A DNA stretch of 8,990 bases, from contig DATCKS010000095.1 of NCBI GenBank assembly GCA_036562265.1, positions 1-8,990 on the forward strand, in the 5' to 3' direction. The number at the start of each line of letters is the position of its first letter. The stretch's first letter is position 1. Positions 1-5,018 of this stretch are shown piece after piece. Position numbers and translations under genes: made by a program. The notes beneath the pieces are model-generated. The model ran no database searches, was not told the origin of the DNA, and was given only the letters and a program-made list of their open reading frames with translations. The stretch is from DASVDK01 sp036562265 [NCBI: Thermodesulfobacteriota bacterium] (GTDB lineage: Bacteria > DASVDK01).

Positions 1-827
1 ACCTCGAGTACCGGCGCGAGGAGCTGTCGTCGGCCAAGGCGGCCCGGCTCGGGACGTCGGACACGAACACGGCCACGCTGCGCTACTCGTACCGGGGGTT
101 CGAGCGGCTCACGCTCATGGGGCGGGTCACCTACTCCGACAAGTTCGGCGACAGCGAGTTCGACGCCAACGACCTGCAGTTCGGCGTCGAGGCCGCCTGG
201 CGCTTCCTGCCGCGCACGACGCTTCGCCTCGACCTGGCGCTCGGACCGGACGCCGACGTGCTGCCGGCCTTCGAGGGGGAGATCGAACTCCTGCAGGGCC
301 TCTCCCTCGGGCGGGCCGGCAGCGCCGTGCTCGGGGCCGGCTACCGGTACCTCGACTTCAACCGGAACGTCCGCCTTGCCGACGACGGTACGGTTGCCGG
401 CGTCGACCCCCGCACCAGGGTGCACATCTTCACCCCGTCGATCGCCTGGTACACGCCGTGGCCGGTCGTCCTCTTGGTCCGCTACTACTACTCCGCGACC
501 GACTTCGAGTCGATCCCCCGGATCGGCGCCTTCCCGGGCCTCGCGGGCGGCACGGACGACACCTCCTCGATCCTCGTGCGCACGACGTTCTTCCCCGAGG
601 CGCGGCTGTCGCCGTTCGTCGCGTACGCCCGCGGCGTCGAGTCCTTCTCGACCGCCGCGCAGCTCAGGGGCCTCACGACCGACACCTACGCCGGCGGCGC
701 GACCCTCAGGCTCGGGCCCCGCTTCGGGCTCCGCCTCCACGTGGAGTACCAGGACTCCGGCCGCGACACGGCCGGCGGCGCCATCAACCAGACCAACGTC
801 GTCGTCGGGACGTTCGTCTCGTGGTAA
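1..827 (+). CDS. YaiO-like outer-membrane beta-barrel protein, C-terminal part (5' end outside window)
   Basis: The reading frame is open from base 3 of the window, so the start and any signal peptide lie upstream; the first internal ATG (117) falls inside conserved-looking barrel sequence and is not taken as the start. About 274 residues are visible. They alternate short amphipathic strands rich in Tyr, Arg, Phe and Gly (for example GAGYRYLDF, TPSIAWYTPW, VLLVRYYYSATDF) with polar turns, and the protein ends in FVSW. A terminal aromatic residue after an alternating strand is the usual C-terminal signal for BAM-dependent barrel insertion. The GYRYLDF and TPSIAWY segments and the company of a HEAT protein and a GT2 synthase recall the YaiO family, often found in exopolysaccharide loci. 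YaiO proteins have no firmly established biochemical role; a part in polysaccharide export or modification is inference. The outer-membrane barrel is well supported, the family name less so. Confidence 0.75.
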   Translation, partial: LEYRREELSSAKAARLGTSDTNTATLRYSYRGFERLTLMGRVTYSDKFGDSEFDANDLQFGVEAAWRFLPRTTLRLDLALGPDADVLPAFEGEIELLQGLSLGRAGSAVLGAGYRYLDFNRNVRLADDGTVAGVDPRTRVHIFTPSIAWYTPWPVVLLVRYYYSATDFESIPRIGAFPGLAGGTDDTSSILVRTTFFPEARLSPFVAYARGVESFSTAAQLRGLTTDTYAGGATLRLGPRFGLRLHVEYQDSGRDTAGGAINQTNVVVGTFVSW

Positions 828-1909
828 GCCTCGTCGGGCTCACCTGGCTGCTCGCGGCCGTGGTCGCGCTCCTCGCGGCCACCGTTCTGGGCCTTCGGAG
901 CCTGCGCGAGGCGCGCGAGCGCCGCAGCATCGAGCGCAAGGCGACGCTGCTGCCGGCCGTGCGGGCGCTCCTCACCGACCCGAACACGACGCCCGACGAC
1001 CTCGCCGCCTTCTGGCGCCGGTCGGGCGCGCCCGAGTCGGTCGCTCGCCTGCTGCTCGACGAGGTCCGCACCCTGGGGCCGGGGCCGCGCGCGGTGGTTA
1101 CGGGGGCGTTCGAGGCGGTCGGCCGGGTCGATCGCGACCTCGCCGCCCTGCGCTCGCGCAGGTGGTGGGTCCGGGCGGCGGCGGCCGACCGCCTGCGCCG
1201 CCTCGCCGTGCCGCGCGCCGCCGACGCGCTCCTCGAGCGCCTGCGCGACCGGCACGAGGAGGTGCGCCTCGTGGCGGCGCGAGCCCTGGCCGATCTCGGC
1301 GACATGCGCGTCATCCGCCCGCTCCTCGCTTCGCTCTCCGGCTCCTCGCGCTGGGCGGCCATCCAGGCGGCCGCCATCCTCACGACGCTCGGGCCCGCCG
1401 CGGCCGACACGCTGATCGCCGTCCTCCGCGAGGAGGCGACCCACGCCGGCGGCGATCCGCGGCGACTCCGCCTGCTGCTCGACAGCCTGGCCGAGGCGGG
1501 GGGCCGCGACGCCGCCGGCACCGTGGCGGCGTTCCTCTCGCACCGCGACCCGGACATCCGCGCCCGCGCGGCGCGCGCCCTCGGCCGCCTCGGGGCGCCC
1601 GACGCGGCCCGCCTGCTGCGACAGGCGCTCGACGATCCGGCCTGGCCGGTGCGGGCGCAGGCGGCCGCCGCCCTCCTCGAGGCGCCGCTCGACGCCGGGA
1701 CCCTCGACGCCCTCGCCCTTCGCCTGTCCGACTCGGCCTACTGGGTGCGGCTGAACGCCGCCGAGACGCTCGGGTACCACACCGACCGCCGGGCGCGGCA
1801 GCGGCTCGTCGCGGCGCTGCGGTCGCCCGATCCCTTCGCCTGCCAGGCGGCGCTTCGGGTCCTCGACGCCTCGGCCGGCCTGCCGCGGGTCGCGGCGGCC
1901 GGCGAGTAG
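821..1909 (+). CDS. Membrane-anchored HEAT-repeat protein
   Basis: The chosen start is GTG at 821, which overlaps the stop of the barrel gene by 7 bases and places a clean membrane anchor at the very N-terminus (residues 4-25, VSLVGLTWLLAAVVALLAAT). The frame is open further upstream, but that part is a shadow of the barrel gene. A basic, charged stretch follows the anchor, fitting a cytoplasmic body. From about residue 114 to the end (362 residues) there are tandem helical repeats of roughly 30 residues with the HEAT/PBS-lyase pattern, such as WVRAAAADRLRRLA, VRLVAARALADLG, IRARAARALGRLGAPDA, VRAQAAAALLEAP and VRLNAAETLGYH. HEAT arrays are protein-binding scaffolds without catalysis. The tight coupling to the glycosyltransferase 8 bases downstream suggests that it organises or regulates the synthase; that partner is inferred. 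The only Shine-Dalgarno candidate is a weak GGGA about 9 bases ahead, so translational coupling is likely. Confidence 0.85.
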   Translation: MVSLVGLTWLLAAVVALLAATVLGLRSLREARERRSIERKATLLPAVRALLTDPNTTPDDLAAFWRRSGAPESVARLLLDEVRTLGPGPRAVVTGAFEAVGRVDRDLAALRSRRWWVRAAAADRLRRLAVPRAADALLERLRDRHEEVRLVAARALADLGDMRVIRPLLASLSGSSRWAAIQAAAILTTLGPAAADTLIAVLREEATHAGGDPRRLRLLLDSLAEAGGRDAAGTVAAFLSHRDPDIRARAARALGRLGAPDAARLLRQALDDPAWPVRAQAAAALLEAPLDAGTLDALALRLSDSAYWVRLNAAETLGYHTDRRARQRLVAALRSPDPFACQAALRVLDASAGLPRVAAAGE

Positions 1910-1911
1910 GA
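1908..1911 (+). promoter_or_regulatory. Shine-Dalgarno AGGA of the glycosyltransferase gene, overlapping the preceding stop codon
   Basis: The stop codon TAG of the HEAT gene (1907-1909) runs into AGGA, followed by 6 bases and then GTG at 1918. This spacing supports GTG 1918 as the start of the glycosyltransferase and points to termination-reinitiation coupling between the two genes. Confidence 0.55.
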
Positions 1912-1917
1912 CGCGCC

Positions 1918-3357
1918 GTGTCGGACCTCGCCGCCCTCCTCGAGCGCGTCGTGACCGGCTGGAGCCACGGGGTCCTGGTCTACTTCGTGGCGCTCCACAC
2001 GATCTACCTCGTCATGTGGGTGCTCTCGCTCCGCACGGTGGTCGCGCACATCCGCGGCCGGCGCTTCCGCGACATCCTGGCGCTCTACCAGTCCCGCCTC
2101 ACGCCGCCGGTCTCGGTCATCGTCCCGGCCTTCAACGAGGCGGCCAACATCGTGGCGAGCGTCCGCTCGCTCACCCGGCTCTCGTATCCCGAGTACGAGG
2201 TCATCGTGGTGAACGACGGCTCGACGGACGATACGCTCGAACGGCTCGTCGCCGCCTTCGACCTCAAGCCGGTCCCGCTCACGAGCCGCCGGGAGCTGCG
2301 CACCCAACCGGTGCGGGCGGTTTACCAGGCGGCCGGACCGGTCTCGCTCCTGGTCGTGGACAAGGTCAACGGCGGCAAGGCCGACGCCCTCAACGCCGGC
2401 ATCAACGTGTCGCGCTACCCCCTCTTCTGCGCGACCGACGCCGACAGCGTCCTCGAGGACGACGCCCTCCTCAAGGTCGTCGCCCCCTTCCTCGAGCACC
2501 CGGACGAGATGATGGCCGTCGGCGGCAGCGTCCGCATCGCCAACGGCTCGACGATCGTCGACGGCCGCGTCGCGCGCGTCGGGCTGCCGCGCGAGCCGCT
2601 CGCCATGTTCCAGATCGTCGAGTACCTGCGGACCTTCCTCACCGGCCGCATGGGGTGGAGCGCGCTGCGGAGCCTCCTCATCATCTCCGGCGCCTTCGGC
2701 CTCTTCCGGAAGGCGGCCGTCGTCGCGGCGGGCGGCTACCGCACCGACACCGTCGGCGAGGACATGGAGCTGGTCGTGCGGATCCACCGGACGCTGCGCG
2801 AGCGGCGGATCCCCTACCGGATGGTCTTCGTCCCCGACCCCATCTGCTGGACCGAGGCCCCGACGACCCTGGCCGGTCTCGAGCGCCAGCGCAACCGCTG
2901 GCAGCGCGGGCTCATCGAGAGCCTGGTGGCGCACCGGCGGATGTTCGCCAACCCGCGCTACGGCGTGATCGGCCTGTTCGCCATGCCCTACTTCGTGCTC
3001 TTCGAGATGCTCGGGCCGGCCGTGGAGCTCTCCGGATACGTGATGGTGGCGATCGCGGCGGCGGCCGGCCTGGTGGACGCCTACTTCCTGCTGCTCTTCT
3101 TCGTGGTTGCCTTCCTGACCGGCGCCTTCCTCTCGATCGCCTCGGTGCTCCTCGAGGAGATGGCCTTCCATCGCTATCGGGGCCTGCGCGCCCTCCTGCG
3201 GATCCTCGGCTACGGCCTCCTCGAGCCGATCTGCTACCGCCAGCTCATGGCGGTCTGGCGGACCCTCGGGATCGTCGACTACCTGCGGCGGCGCAACGAC
3301 TGGGGGGCGCAGAGCCGGCGCGGCTTCGTCTGGCGCGAGGGGCCGCGGGTGCCCTAG
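1918..3357 (+). CDS. Processive-type family 2 glycosyltransferase (membrane-embedded polysaccharide synthase)
   Basis: The gene encodes 479 residues from GTG 1918; the frame is open far upstream, but only because it shadows the two preceding genes. Layout: an N-terminal membrane helix (about residues 17-38), a GT-A catalytic domain (about 62-335), then hydrophobic helices at about 349-415 and a basic C-terminal tail. All GT2 synthase signatures are present: VSVIVPAFNE (65-74), VVNDGSTDD with Asp100, the NGGKADALN donor-binding segment, the metal-binding DAD at 174-176, the catalytic-base motif GED at 280-282, and QRNRW at 324-328, the (Q/R)xxRW motif of processive enzymes. This set is shared by cellulose, poly-N-acetylglucosamine, hyaluronan and NodC-type synthases, so it should use a nucleotide sugar to elongate a beta-linked polymer at the inner membrane. 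The sugar cannot be told from sequence. No PilZ c-di-GMP domain is visible. Confidence 0.9.
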   Translation: MSDLAALLERVVTGWSHGVLVYFVALHTIYLVMWVLSLRTVVAHIRGRRFRDILALYQSRLTPPVSVIVPAFNEAANIVASVRSLTRLSYPEYEVIVVNDGSTDDTLERLVAAFDLKPVPLTSRRELRTQPVRAVYQAAGPVSLLVVDKVNGGKADALNAGINVSRYPLFCATDADSVLEDDALLKVVAPFLEHPDEMMAVGGSVRIANGSTIVDGRVARVGLPREPLAMFQIVEYLRTFLTGRMGWSALRSLLIISGAFGLFRKAAVVAAGGYRTDTVGEDMELVVRIHRTLRERRIPYRMVFVPDPICWTEAPTTLAGLERQRNRWQRGLIESLVAHRRMFANPRYGVIGLFAMPYFVLFEMLGPAVELSGYVMVAIAAAAGLVDAYFLLLFFVVAFLTGAFLSIASVLLEEMAFHRYRGLRALLRILGYGLLEPICYRQLMAVWRTLGIVDYLRRRNDWGAQSRRGFVWREGPRVP

Positions 3358-3396
3358 AACGGTTCGGGGATCGGCCTTCCGGGTCGCCGCCGGGAC

Positions 3397-3420
3397 GGAC
3401 CCGGCCCGGGCCTCGGGTCC
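3397..3420 (+). terminator. Possible rho-independent-like hairpin after the glycosyltransferase gene
   Basis: A perfect 7-bp inverted repeat, GGACCCG (3397-3403) and CGGGTCC (3414-3420), lies 40 bases after the glycosyltransferase stop, with a loop that itself contains the palindrome GCCCGGGC. No T-run follows, so it could slow or end transcription only as a U-tract-less hairpin. In DNA this GC-rich such repeats also arise by chance. Confidence 0.3.
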
Positions 3421-3608: not shown

Positions 3609-3917
3609 TCAGAGGTCTTTGAACGTCTTCCAGGCGCGGAACTTCTCGGGCGTGCGGCTGGGGTGGCTCGCGAACGTCTTGCTGATCTCCAGCATGGCGT
3701 CCATGAGCTTTTCCTTCCTGGGGTGCCCTTCGGTCATCCGCTCGGCCATCTTGAGCTGCGCGTCGCGGAGCCCCGCGAGCTTCTCCCACTGGGAGAGGAG
3801 CTCGTCGATGAGCCGGACGTCCTCCTCGCCGAGCCCGTGACGGCGGCAGATGTCGTCGATGGCGGAGCCGAGCACGTAGTGGACGAACGTGATGGTGGAC
3901 GGGCCCTCGCCTCGCAT
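3609..3917 (-). CDS. Small soluble protein of unknown function (102 residues)
   Basis: I do not recognise a family. The protein has no membrane segment, signal peptide or cysteine-based metal site; its single Cys is in DDICRRHGLG. It looks mostly helical and charged: an N-terminal helix (about 9-25), a second around EEDVRLIDELLSQWEKLAG, a third around RDAQLKMAERM, and a fourth at KEKLMDAMLEISKTF, ending in a basic-aromatic tail RAWKTFKDL. The composition is protein-like, unlike the Arg/Pro/Ala-rich antisense frames, and the ATG sits exactly 7 bases after a perfect TATAAT on the same strand, which supports both its reality and its start. It lies 39 bases after selD on the same strand, so it may be co-transcribed with selD as well as transcribed by itself. 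A link to selenium metabolism would be guesswork. Confidence 0.7.
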   Translation of the reverse strand: MRGEGPSTITFVHYVLGSAIDDICRRHGLGEEDVRLIDELLSQWEKLAGLRDAQLKMAERMTEGHPRKEKLMDAMLEISKTFASHPSRTPEKFRAWKTFKDL

Positions 3918-3956: not shown

Positions 3957-5018
3957 TCAGCGGACCTCGACCGCCGGCGGGCCGGAACGGACCTCGCCGA
4001 TCACCCACCCGCGGGCCCCCTCGGCCGCCAGGCGCTCGAGGAGGAGGTCGGTCCGATCCGGGGAGATGGTGACGAGCAGCCCGCCCGAGGTCTCGCTGTC
4101 GAAGAGGAGATCGGCCGTGAGGCGTTCGACGTCGGCGCCGACCTCGACGGGGACCGGCGCCTCGGGTCCGGTGAGGAAGGCCCGGTTGCGCGTCGCGCCG
4201 CCGCTGAGGAGGCCCCGCCGGGCGTACTCGCGCGCGCCGGGGAGCACCGGCACGGCGGCCGCCTCGACGAGGAAGCGAACGCTGCCGCCGCGCAGCATCT
4301 CGGCGGCGTGGCCGAGGAGACCGAAGCCGGTGACGTCGGTCGACGCGCTGGCGCCGCTCGCCACCATCGCCTTCGACGCCCCCTGGTTGAGCGCCATCAT
4401 GCTGGCGATGGCTGCCTCCAGGTCCTCCGGCTTCGCCTTCCCGAACTTGCCGGCCGTGGCCACGGCGCCGGTGCCGATCGGCTTGGTGAGCACGAGCCGG
4501 TCGCCCGGCGCGGCGCCGACCTTGGTCCGCACCTGCGCCGGATCGACGAGTCCGGTCACGCAGAGGCCGTACTTCGGTTCCTTGTCGACGATGGTGTGGC
4601 CGCCCGCAACGATTCCCCCCGCCTCGGCGACCTTGTCGGCGCCCCCCTGGAAGATCCGGGTGATCACCTCGGGCGGCAGTTCCGCGGGGAAGCCGGCGAT
4701 GTTGAGGGCGAGGATCACGCGCCCCCCCTTCGCGAAGACGTCGCTCATCGCATTGGCCGCGGCGATGGCGCCGAACGCGTAGGGATCGTCCACGACCGGC
4801 GGGAAGAAGTCGAGCGTCTGCACCAGCGCCACGTCGGGCGCGATGCGGTAAATCGCCGCGTCGTCGGCCGGGTTGAGTCCCACCAGGAGGTCCGGGTGGG
4901 AGTAGGCCGCAAGCGGCGCCAGGACTCGGGCCAGGTCCGCCGGACCCAGCTTGGACGCTCACCCGGCGCAGGCGGCGTACTCGGTGAGCCGGATCTTGGA
5001 CTTCCCGAAAAGCGGCAT
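3957..5018 (-). CDS. selD: Selenophosphate synthetase (selenide, water dikinase), selenocysteine-containing
   Basis: SelD makes monoselenophosphate from selenide and ATP, the selenium donor for selenocysteine and selenouridine. From ATG 5018 the frame gives 353 residues if TGA at 4961-4959 is read as selenocysteine 20. The N-terminus then reads IRLTEYAACAG-Sec-ASKLG, matching the family's catalytic segment (E. coli IRLTQYSHGAGCGCK, with Cys17 and Lys20 essential), so Sec20 replaces the catalytic Cys and Lys23 is the conserved Lys. Further family marks: PADDAAIYR with Asp53, TLDFFPPVVDDPY with Asp70, AAANAMSDVFAKGG with Asp93, AGGHTI, LTKPIGTGAVAT, STDVTGFGLLGHAAEM and DSETSGGLLVTI. Metal and ATP ligands are thus intact. 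The GTG at 4883, from which a plain reading would start, falls in the middle of LLVGLNPADD and would delete the active site. The gene is 88 bases after glnD and 39 before the small gene. The product is cytoplasmic and about family length (E. coli 347). Confidence 0.95.
4930..4950 (-). promoter_or_regulatory. Bacterial SECIS-type hairpin within the selD coding sequence
   Basis: Counting bases after the UGA, positions 9-17 (GCUGGGUCC) pair with 21-29 (GGACCUGGC): seven Watson-Crick pairs and two G-U wobbles, closing the loop GGC. The loop begins 17 bases after UGA and its first two bases are G. Bacterial SECIS elements sit immediately 3' of the UGA, with the apical loop about 16-37 bases away and a G among the first loop bases, where the elongation factor SelB binds. 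The fit is good; the fold was drawn by hand, without energy calculation. Confidence 0.75.
4959..4961 (-). other. selD: In-frame TGA decoded as selenocysteine (codon 20 of selD)
   Basis: The codon lies between GCC-GGG (Ala18, Gly19) and GCG-TCC-AAG (Ala21, Ser22, Lys23). Homology to SelD continues without a break on both sides, the base count keeps frame, and the codon aligns with the catalytic Cys of Cys-type SelD proteins. Selenocysteine at this position is established for SelD of several bacteria and archaea. Cys17 upstream makes a CxxU pair. Confidence 0.93.

What the first reader, a model, noticed from the sequence alone, without database searches (positions are those of the whole stretch)
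4930..5018. selD is itself a selenoprotein gene: in-frame UGA at codon 20 hides the active site
Seen: translating the minus strand from ATG 5018 gives IRLTEYAACAG, then TGA, then ASKLGPADLARVL, in the same frame as the rest of SelD, with the TGA at the catalytic Cys position. A plain ORF reading starts at GTG 4883 and loses 45 residues including the catalytic Sec and Lys. Known: Sec-containing SelD proteins exist in several lineages. Inference: the organism has the full Sec-decoding apparatus (SelA, SelB, tRNA-Sec), and SelD synthesis depends on its own product, an autoregulatory loop.
Basis: partly seen in the sequence, partly recalled or inferred. Interest (0 to 1): 0.85.

Follow-up and report, generated by a model that had tools for sequence, protein, structure and literature searches.

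The report
Selenium-donor enzyme gene needing selenium itself
The gene for the enzyme that activates selenium contains a "stop" codon at its catalytic position that is almost certainly read as the amino acid selenocysteine; this is a known kind of gene, but its relatives show a second RNA hairpin next to the usual one.

Summary
On the minus strand, 3957-5018 is one selD frame broken only by TGA at 4959-4961 (codon 20), which aligns with E. coli SelD Cys17; codon 23 aligns with its catalytic Lys. A plain ORF caller starts at GTG 4883 and loses 45 residues. A sequencing error is very unlikely: 27 of 34 relatives carry TGA at exactly this codon and 7 carry Cys. Behind the TGA lies a 9-bp hairpin (4930-4950, loop GGC) that meets the published bSECIS rules and is stronger than about 99.85% of synonymous recodings. 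Whether the host has SelA, SelB and tRNA-Sec could not be tested (no genome held); of 27 relatives with Sec-type SelD, 26 have SelB and 22 tRNA-Sec. Self-dependence of SelD follows from its chemistry; regulation was not shown. Verdict: new member of a known kind. Beyond the finding: many relatives in Chloroflexota and the phylum of G018 have a second hairpin at about +26 to +44. It exceeds coding expectation in Sec-type genes and not in Cys-type ones, and a synonymous base covaries with it (95 of 98 paired). The window has only a weak, bulged version.

The parts
3957..5018 (-). selD, selenophosphate synthetase (selenide, water dikinase), 353 codons plus stop TGA, read through the in-frame TGA
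4884..5018 (-). the 45 N-terminal codons lost by a plain ORF call that starts at GTG 4883; they hold the Sec codon and the catalytic Lys
4959..4961 (-). in-frame TGA, read as selenocysteine (residue 20), aligned with E. coli SelD Cys17
   Evidence: residue number recalled
4950..4952 (-). codon 23, Lys, aligned with the catalytic Lys of E. coli SelD
   Evidence: alignment; catalytic role recalled
4930..4950 (-). bSECIS hairpin H1: 9 bp, loop GGC at +18 to +20 after the TGA (4939-4941), -14.1 kcal/mol
   Evidence: published model
4914..4933 (-). weak, bulged hairpin H2: 7 bp, loop AGUCC at +33 to +37, -7.3 kcal/mol; place of the second hairpin of relatives; overlaps the base of H1; not beyond synonymous shuffles in the window itself

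Best explanation
The gene encodes a selenocysteine-type SelD. The ribosome starts at ATG 5018, meets UGA at codon 20 and, instead of stopping, takes Sec-tRNA-Sec delivered by SelB, which is docked on the hairpin H1 just downstream (bSECIS). It then goes on to the real stop, which is also a UGA (3957-3959), so recoding is position-specific within the same mRNA. The finished enzyme uses Sec20 and Lys23 to make selenophosphate from selenide and ATP, the selenium donor for SelA to make more Sec-tRNA. Completion of SelD therefore needs selenophosphate, that is, some SelD already present. Shown here: frame, homology, conservation of TGA at the site, position-specific hairpin. Inferred: recoding in this organism, presence of SelA, SelB and tRNA-Sec, enzyme activity, and any regulatory meaning of the loop.
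For: SelD profile match over full length with the TGA inside (354 bits). TGA aligned with the catalytic Cys of solved SelD. TGA at the same codon in 27 of 34 relatives of the first scan and Cys in the other 7. In all, 164 Sec and 22 Cys codons among 186 records with the site; two of these are repeats (L062 of L012, L038 of L021), and some were fetched because their row showed a TGA or showed none, so this is not a frequency. H1 in the window: 11 of 20000 (selD codon usage) or 30 of 20000 (pooled usage) synonymous recodings fold as well. In 46 Sec representatives (drawn from a pool that includes the window) the stretch +10 to +28 folds better than synonymous recodings (mean Z -1.74, t -12.1); in 15 Cys representatives it does not (mean Z +0.31). 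H1 meets each rule of the published bSECIS model: loop 3-9 nt, stem 4-16 bp, G in the first two loop positions, 16-37 nt spacing (17 here), at or below -7.5 kcal/mol (model quoted; fold). No other stop in the frame of 354 codons.
Against: No genome for the window, so SelA, SelB and tRNA-Sec are unseen. H1 is unremarkable against composition-only shuffles (29 of 200 as good), and in a 48-nt context a longer alternative fold (-19.9 kcal/mol) competes. No clear Shine-Dalgarno sequence before ATG 5018 (by eye).
Confidence: 0.94

Rival explanations
1. The TGA is a sequencing or assembly error in a Cys-type selD (TGT or TGC).
For: A single-base change would do it; Cys-type SelD exists among relatives (7 of 34).
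Against: TGA at the same codon in 27 of 34 relatives; a hairpin at the bSECIS place, for which Cys-type genes show no excess over synonymous recodings; fewer than 2 in 1000 synonymous recodings of the window give such a hairpin.
Confidence: 0.02
2. A broken gene: translation starts at GTG 4883 and makes a shortened, catalytically dead or re-purposed SelD-like protein, or the gene is decaying in a host that lost Sec decoding.
For: GTG 4883 opens an uninterrupted 308-aa frame. In 1 of 27 genomes with Sec-type SelD (G004) SelB was below cut-off and no tRNA-Sec of 65 bits was seen.
Against: The 45 lost residues add 38.9 bits of profile score; the bSECIS hairpin is in place; no other stop in the frame. 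G004 is a metagenome-assembled genome by the title of L004, so genes may be missing from it.
Confidence: 0.03
3. UGA is reassigned or read through as another amino acid (for example Trp) in this host.
For: None found.
Against: The uninterrupted glnD frame (906 codons) and mutS part (385 codons) hold no TGA, and both selD and glnD end with TGA; the site is the catalytic Cys column.
Confidence: 0.01

Closest known systems
Sec-containing bacterial SelD (for example that of Haemophilus influenzae; name recalled). In PMC4561486 19% of SelD genes in a reference set carry Sec, always in the same position (passages)
   Same: UGA at the catalytic codon, bSECIS-like hairpin behind it, SelD over its whole length
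   Different: Nothing in kind. Residue +2 after U is Ser (GUASK) where E. coli has Cys (GCGCK). Closest loci found are 55-60% identical behind residue 45.
E. coli SelD, Cys type (PDB 3u0o) and the SelD of 2yye/2zod
   Same: Whole-length homology, E 7e-70 and 9e-61
   Different: The E. coli enzyme has Cys at the site, no recoding.
bSECIS consensus model (bSECISearch; as described in PMC13188914, passages)
   Same: Window H1 meets all listed constraints
   Different: As described there the model is one stem-loop. Many relatives carry a second hairpin directly behind it at a fixed distance.
E. coli fdhF SECIS (sequence recalled, not fetched)
   Same: The second hairpin of relatives, GCA-GGUYC-UGC, resembles its upper stem-loop GCA-GGUC-UGC
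   Different: Its loop lies at about +33 rather than about +19, behind another hairpin; in the window the element is weak and its loop is AGUCC.

Membership tests
SelD (selenide, water dikinase) | full-length match to the equivalog profile over its curated cut-off | tested here: met
   TIGR00476 354 bits (cut-off 125), NF002098 316 bits (cut-off 299)
SelD (selenide, water dikinase) | catalytic Cys or Sec followed by Lys three residues on | tested here: met
   TGA at codon 20, Lys at codon 23, aligned with E. coli C17 and K20 (numbering recalled)
SelD (selenide, water dikinase) | makes selenophosphate | not testable with these tools
   needs an assay
Sec-type SelD selenoprotein gene | in-frame UGA at the Cys column, same in homologues, with Cys as the alternative | tested here: met
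   27 TGA and 7 Cys of 34
Sec-type SelD selenoprotein gene | bSECIS hairpin downstream of the UGA fulfilling the published rules | tested here: met
   9 bp, loop GGC, G first, 17 nt spacing, -14.1 kcal/mol (rules)
Sec-type SelD selenoprotein gene | selB and tRNA-Sec in the same genome | not testable with these tools
   no genome held; in relatives with Sec-type SelD 26 of 27 and 22 of 27
Tandem-hairpin bSECIS of relatives | second hairpin with loop at +33 to +37 beyond what coding requires | tested here: inconclusive
   window H2 is 7 bp with a bulge, -7.3 kcal/mol and passes the count, but 29% of synonymous shuffles fold as well

The most novel reading that the evidence does not exclude
Sec-type selD mRNAs carry the SelB docking loop at one of two fixed places: in a proximal hairpin (loop about +17) or in a distal hairpin (loop about +33) that sits directly behind a proximal one. 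In the tandem form the proximal hairpin would act as a folded spacer: taking about 14 nt out of the path brings the distal loop to about +20, the distance of E. coli fdhF (recalled). Lineages have gained or lost the distal hairpin repeatedly (10 changes on the best SelD tree). The window would be of the proximal type (loop GGC) with a weak distal hairpin, perhaps a relic. Shown: the distal hairpin exceeds coding expectation in Sec genes and not in Cys genes, and a synonymous base covaries with it. Not shown: which hairpin SelB binds, the trade-off once kinship is allowed for, and the spacer idea.
Probability: 0.4. Interest if true: 0.6.

Novelty: new member of a known kind. Interest (0 to 1): 0.4.

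Why it matters
For the window: an ordinary ORF call would give this SelD without its active site. As SelD with Sec, it implies a Sec-decoding organism whose machinery lies outside the window. For the relatives: bSECIS elements are described as hard to unite under one model (PMC13188914, PMC12013277, passages). A tandem-hairpin form with a covariation signature would help to explain part of that spread and would sharpen selenoprotein gene finding. It also makes a plain reporter test possible: which hairpin does SelB need?

Tried and rejected
Getting the host: no genome is held for the window, so selA, selB, selC and other UGA genes could not be sought there. Host phylum: on the SelD tree the window lies on one side of a starred branch (100/97) with 55 of the 56 Chloroflexota-side rows (rows from three searched phyla only), but the window's GlnD has no real match in 61 genomes of that phylum (3 weak matches, best 19.9 bits), and the YaiO barrel gene speaks for an outer membrane. 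A scan of viral contigs gave no SelD relative.

A rule tried and not upheld: 'the loop of H1 carries GG[GCU] if and only if H2 is absent'. It was found on 86 representatives (GG/no H2 25, GG/H2 10, other/no H2 9, other/H2 36; 6 unclear rows left out; Fisher p 4.5e-6), then written down and tested on 60 fresh loci (23, 7, 11, 15, 4 unclear). On the 37 independent ones the direction held but was not significant (18, 4, 7, 6, 2 unclear, p 0.12). A looser rule that had been computed before the fresh loci were read, 'at least one of the two hairpins has a G in the first two loop positions', held better: neither in 2 of 37 fresh representatives against a mean of 28.0 (minimum 21) in 100 sets of synonymous shuffles; 0 of 42 and 0 of 19 in the first sets. 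It fails in Planctomycetota (13 of 25 neither, shuffle mean 16.0). The trade-off between the two hairpins is unproven once kinship is allowed for: 7 independent pairs, H1 changed the opposite way in 1.3 on average, the same way in 0, unchanged in 5.7. Mere presence of H2 by the loose count does not separate Sec from Cys genes cleanly: 9 of 22 Cys loci pass it.

Full report
What was checked. The minus-strand frame from ATG 5018 runs 354 codons to TGA 3957-3959 with a single internal stop, TGA at codon 20 (4959-4961). A plain reading starts at GTG 4883 and gives 308 aa. With the TGA read through, the product matches the SelD profile TIGR00476 from its first position with 354 bits; the plain ORF matches from position 41 with 315 bits. 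Against E. coli SelD (3u0o, E 7e-70) the TGA falls on Cys17 and codon 23 on the Lys of GAGCGCK (residue numbers recalled).

Chance and error. One scan of the named genome collection by short peptide patterns, so not exhaustive, gave 34 SelD relatives: 27 have TGA at exactly this codon, 7 have TGC or TGT, none TAA or TAG. Searches of whole genomes gave more: 127 of 151 genomes in the phylum of G012 (it contains G020, whose locus is titled Ardenticatenales), 165 of 249 in that of G018 (titled Eubacteriales) and 133 of 199 in that of G034 (titled Planctomycetaceae) match the window's SelD, and most of the listed full-length matches have one TGA inside (E cut-offs 1e-3, 1e-50, 1e-50; weak matches to other kinases are among the 127; the lists are capped). 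Of 191 records then in hand, 186 held the site: 164 TGA and 22 Cys. Two are repeats (L062 of L012, L038 of L021), and this is not a random sample, since I fetched rows partly because they showed a TGA or showed none. A sequencing error is therefore very unlikely.

The recoding signal. Directly behind the TGA, 4930-4950, lies a hairpin of 9 bp with loop GGC, -14.1 kcal/mol. The loop starts 17 nt after the TGA with a G. The published bSECIS model asks for a 3-9 nt loop, a 4-16 bp stem, a G in the first two loop positions, 16-37 nt spacing and -7.5 kcal/mol or lower (PMC13188914, passages); all are met. Since the window is 72.5% GC, hairpins are cheap: dinucleotide shuffles do as well in 29 of 200 and 66 of 4797 25-nt stretches of selD, glnD and mutS reach -14.1. 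The fair test keeps the protein and recodes synonymously: 11 of 20000 (selD usage) and 30 of 20000 (selD, glnD and mutS usage) do as well. In a 48-nt context a longer fold at -19.9 competes; its outer 5' arm would be inside the ribosome when the UGA is decoded (recalled knowledge).

The host. No genome is held. In the genomes of the 34 relatives, tRNA-Sec stands out (65 bits or more against 50.6 or less for other matches): 25 of 34, that is 22 of 27 with Sec-type and 3 of 7 with Cys-type SelD (at most 90 candidates per genome were scored, so misses are possible). SelB is over its cut-off in 51 of 56 genomes searched; among the 34, 26 of 27 Sec-type and 4 of 7 Cys-type. So full Sec decoding in the window's host is likely but unseen. 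The host itself is unclear: its SelD sits with 55 Chloroflexota-side sequences (100/97; end branch 0.83; three searched phyla only), yet its GlnD has no true match in 61 genomes of that phylum, and none of the other six window proteins matches any of the 34 loci (E up to 1e-4). Transfer of selD, or a phylum not sampled here, are both open.

What was not expected: a second hairpin in the relatives. I slid a 19-nt window along the mRNA behind the Sec codon and compared folding with synonymous recodings. In 46 Sec representatives (at most 80% identical over 48 nt) there are two sharp peaks of extra stability, at +7 to +28 (t -12.1 at +10 to +28) and at +25 to +46 (t -7.4 at +25 to +43). Elsewhere effects are small: -2.7 at +76 to +94, and weaker folding than expected at +40 to +61 (t up to +4.3). 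15 Cys representatives show neither peak. By group, with codon usage taken outside the tested stretch: Chloroflexota side n 42, t -11.9 (+10) and -7.2 (+25); phylum of G018 n 19, t -11.9 (+10) and -2.5 to -2.8 (+25, +28); Planctomycetota n 25, t -3.0 (+10) and -2.5 to -3.5 (+22 to +28); Cys n 18, t +2.0 (+10) and -1.5 to -1.6 (+25, +28). The second hairpin (H2) typically reads GGCGCA-GGUUC-UGCGCC. By a loose count (5 or more bp with at most one defect, -6 kcal/mol or lower) it is present in 78 of 104 Sec loci on the Chloroflexota side, 16 of 31 in the phylum of G018 and 10 of 28 in Planctomycetota, in 22 of 60 fresh loci of the G018 phylum, but also in 9 of 22 Cys loci, so the count alone does not separate them; the excess over synonymous recodings does (mean Z -1.67 in 102 Sec against -0.18 in 18 Cys).

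Covariation. The H2 helix is supported by a base that the protein does not fix: where codon +14 is Arg CGN (98 of 216 unique Sec sequences), its third base (+42) pairs with base +28 in 95 of 98 (68 Watson-Crick, 27 G-U; A-U 11, G-C 47, G-U 21, U-A 10, U-G 6), against a Watson-Crick maximum of 55 in 10000 permutations. In 43 less related representatives 41 pair (27 Watson-Crick, permutation mean 17.1, maximum 27, so the observed value is the top of the permutations). Permutations do not allow for kinship. H2 with a G in its loop needs 10 changes on the best SelD tree of 83 scored rows. All 60 fresh loci have TGA at the site (they were chosen from rows that showed one).

How the two hairpins may share the work. 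By the G-in-loop rule, in the two phyla where it holds, hardly any gene lacks both: 0 of 42, 0 of 19, and 2 of 37 fresh representatives, against shuffle means of 23.1, 14.5 and 28.0. Where H1 fails the rule, H2 meets it in 16 of 18 fresh loci, 4 of 6 among representatives. A sharper rule did not hold up on fresh data, and with kinship taken into account the trade-off is unproven. The idea that H1 is a folded spacer which brings the loop of H2 to about +20, as in fdhF, is arithmetic plus recall, not a result. The window's H1 loop GGC is that of L042, L074 and L132, which lack H2, but two fresh loci with the same H1 core, L208 and L239, do have H2. The window's own H2 is bulged and 29% of synonymous recodings equal it.

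Literature. Sec-type SelD is well known: 19% of SelD genes in a reference set carry Sec, always in the same position (PMC4561486, passages); [quoted passage not shown] three selenoproteins of Chloroflexi were counted in 2006, and the idea that Sec decoding may be maintained for SelD itself is there too (PMC1794560, passages). For a tandem or second hairpin in bSECIS, four searches of the open library gave no paper that from its listing describes one (20 of 32 listed; 1; none). This does not cover subscription journals; the bSECISearch paper itself was not seen.

Verdict. The finding is real and correctly read as a Sec-type selD; it is a new member of a known kind, and its mechanism is the standard one. 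The autoregulation claim goes beyond the evidence. The second hairpin of relatives is the part worth a specialist's time.

Noticed in passing
selD of many Chloroflexota-side and G018-phylum loci (for example L040, L139), +26 to +44 after the Sec codon: Second hairpin directly behind the bSECIS hairpin, beyond coding expectation in Sec-type genes only, with covariation of a synonymous base (95 of 98 paired).
   Followed up: yes
window 3957-3959 and 4959-4961: The same codon, TGA, is read as Sec inside selD and ends it, a built-in sign that recoding would be position-specific.
   Followed up: yes
L116 (G153 selD, Cys type): A Cys-type selD with a strong hairpin at the bSECIS place (-13.3 kcal/mol, 3% of shuffles as good), perhaps a relic of a former Sec gene; the best SelB match of that genome is just under cut-off (231 against 242 bits).
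   Followed up: no
G185, G330, G294, G186, G229, G273: Genomes of the G018 phylum with two SelD genes that both show a TGA; the site itself was read in both copies only for G185 and G330.
   Followed up: partly
G010, G021, G029: Cys-type SelD beside tRNA-Sec and SelB: these hosts keep Sec decoding although SelD no longer needs it.
   Followed up: no
window 3609-3917 (-): 102-aa frame 39 bases behind selD without Pfam or NCBIfam match at E 0.001 and no match in the 34 loci.
   Followed up: partly
window 3-3357 (+): YaiO-type outer-membrane barrel, HEAT-repeat protein and PgaC/IcaA-like glycosyltransferase in a row: may be a polysaccharide secretion set.
   Followed up: no
window 3322-3403 (+): ARAGORN calls a tRNA-Ser overlapping the end of the glycosyltransferase gene; Rfam finds no tRNA there at E 1, so probably false.
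   Followed up: partly
window 4141-4177 (-): Rfam CRISPR-DR20 hit inside selD at E 0.72, 22 bits against a gathering score of 42: chance.
   Followed up: yes
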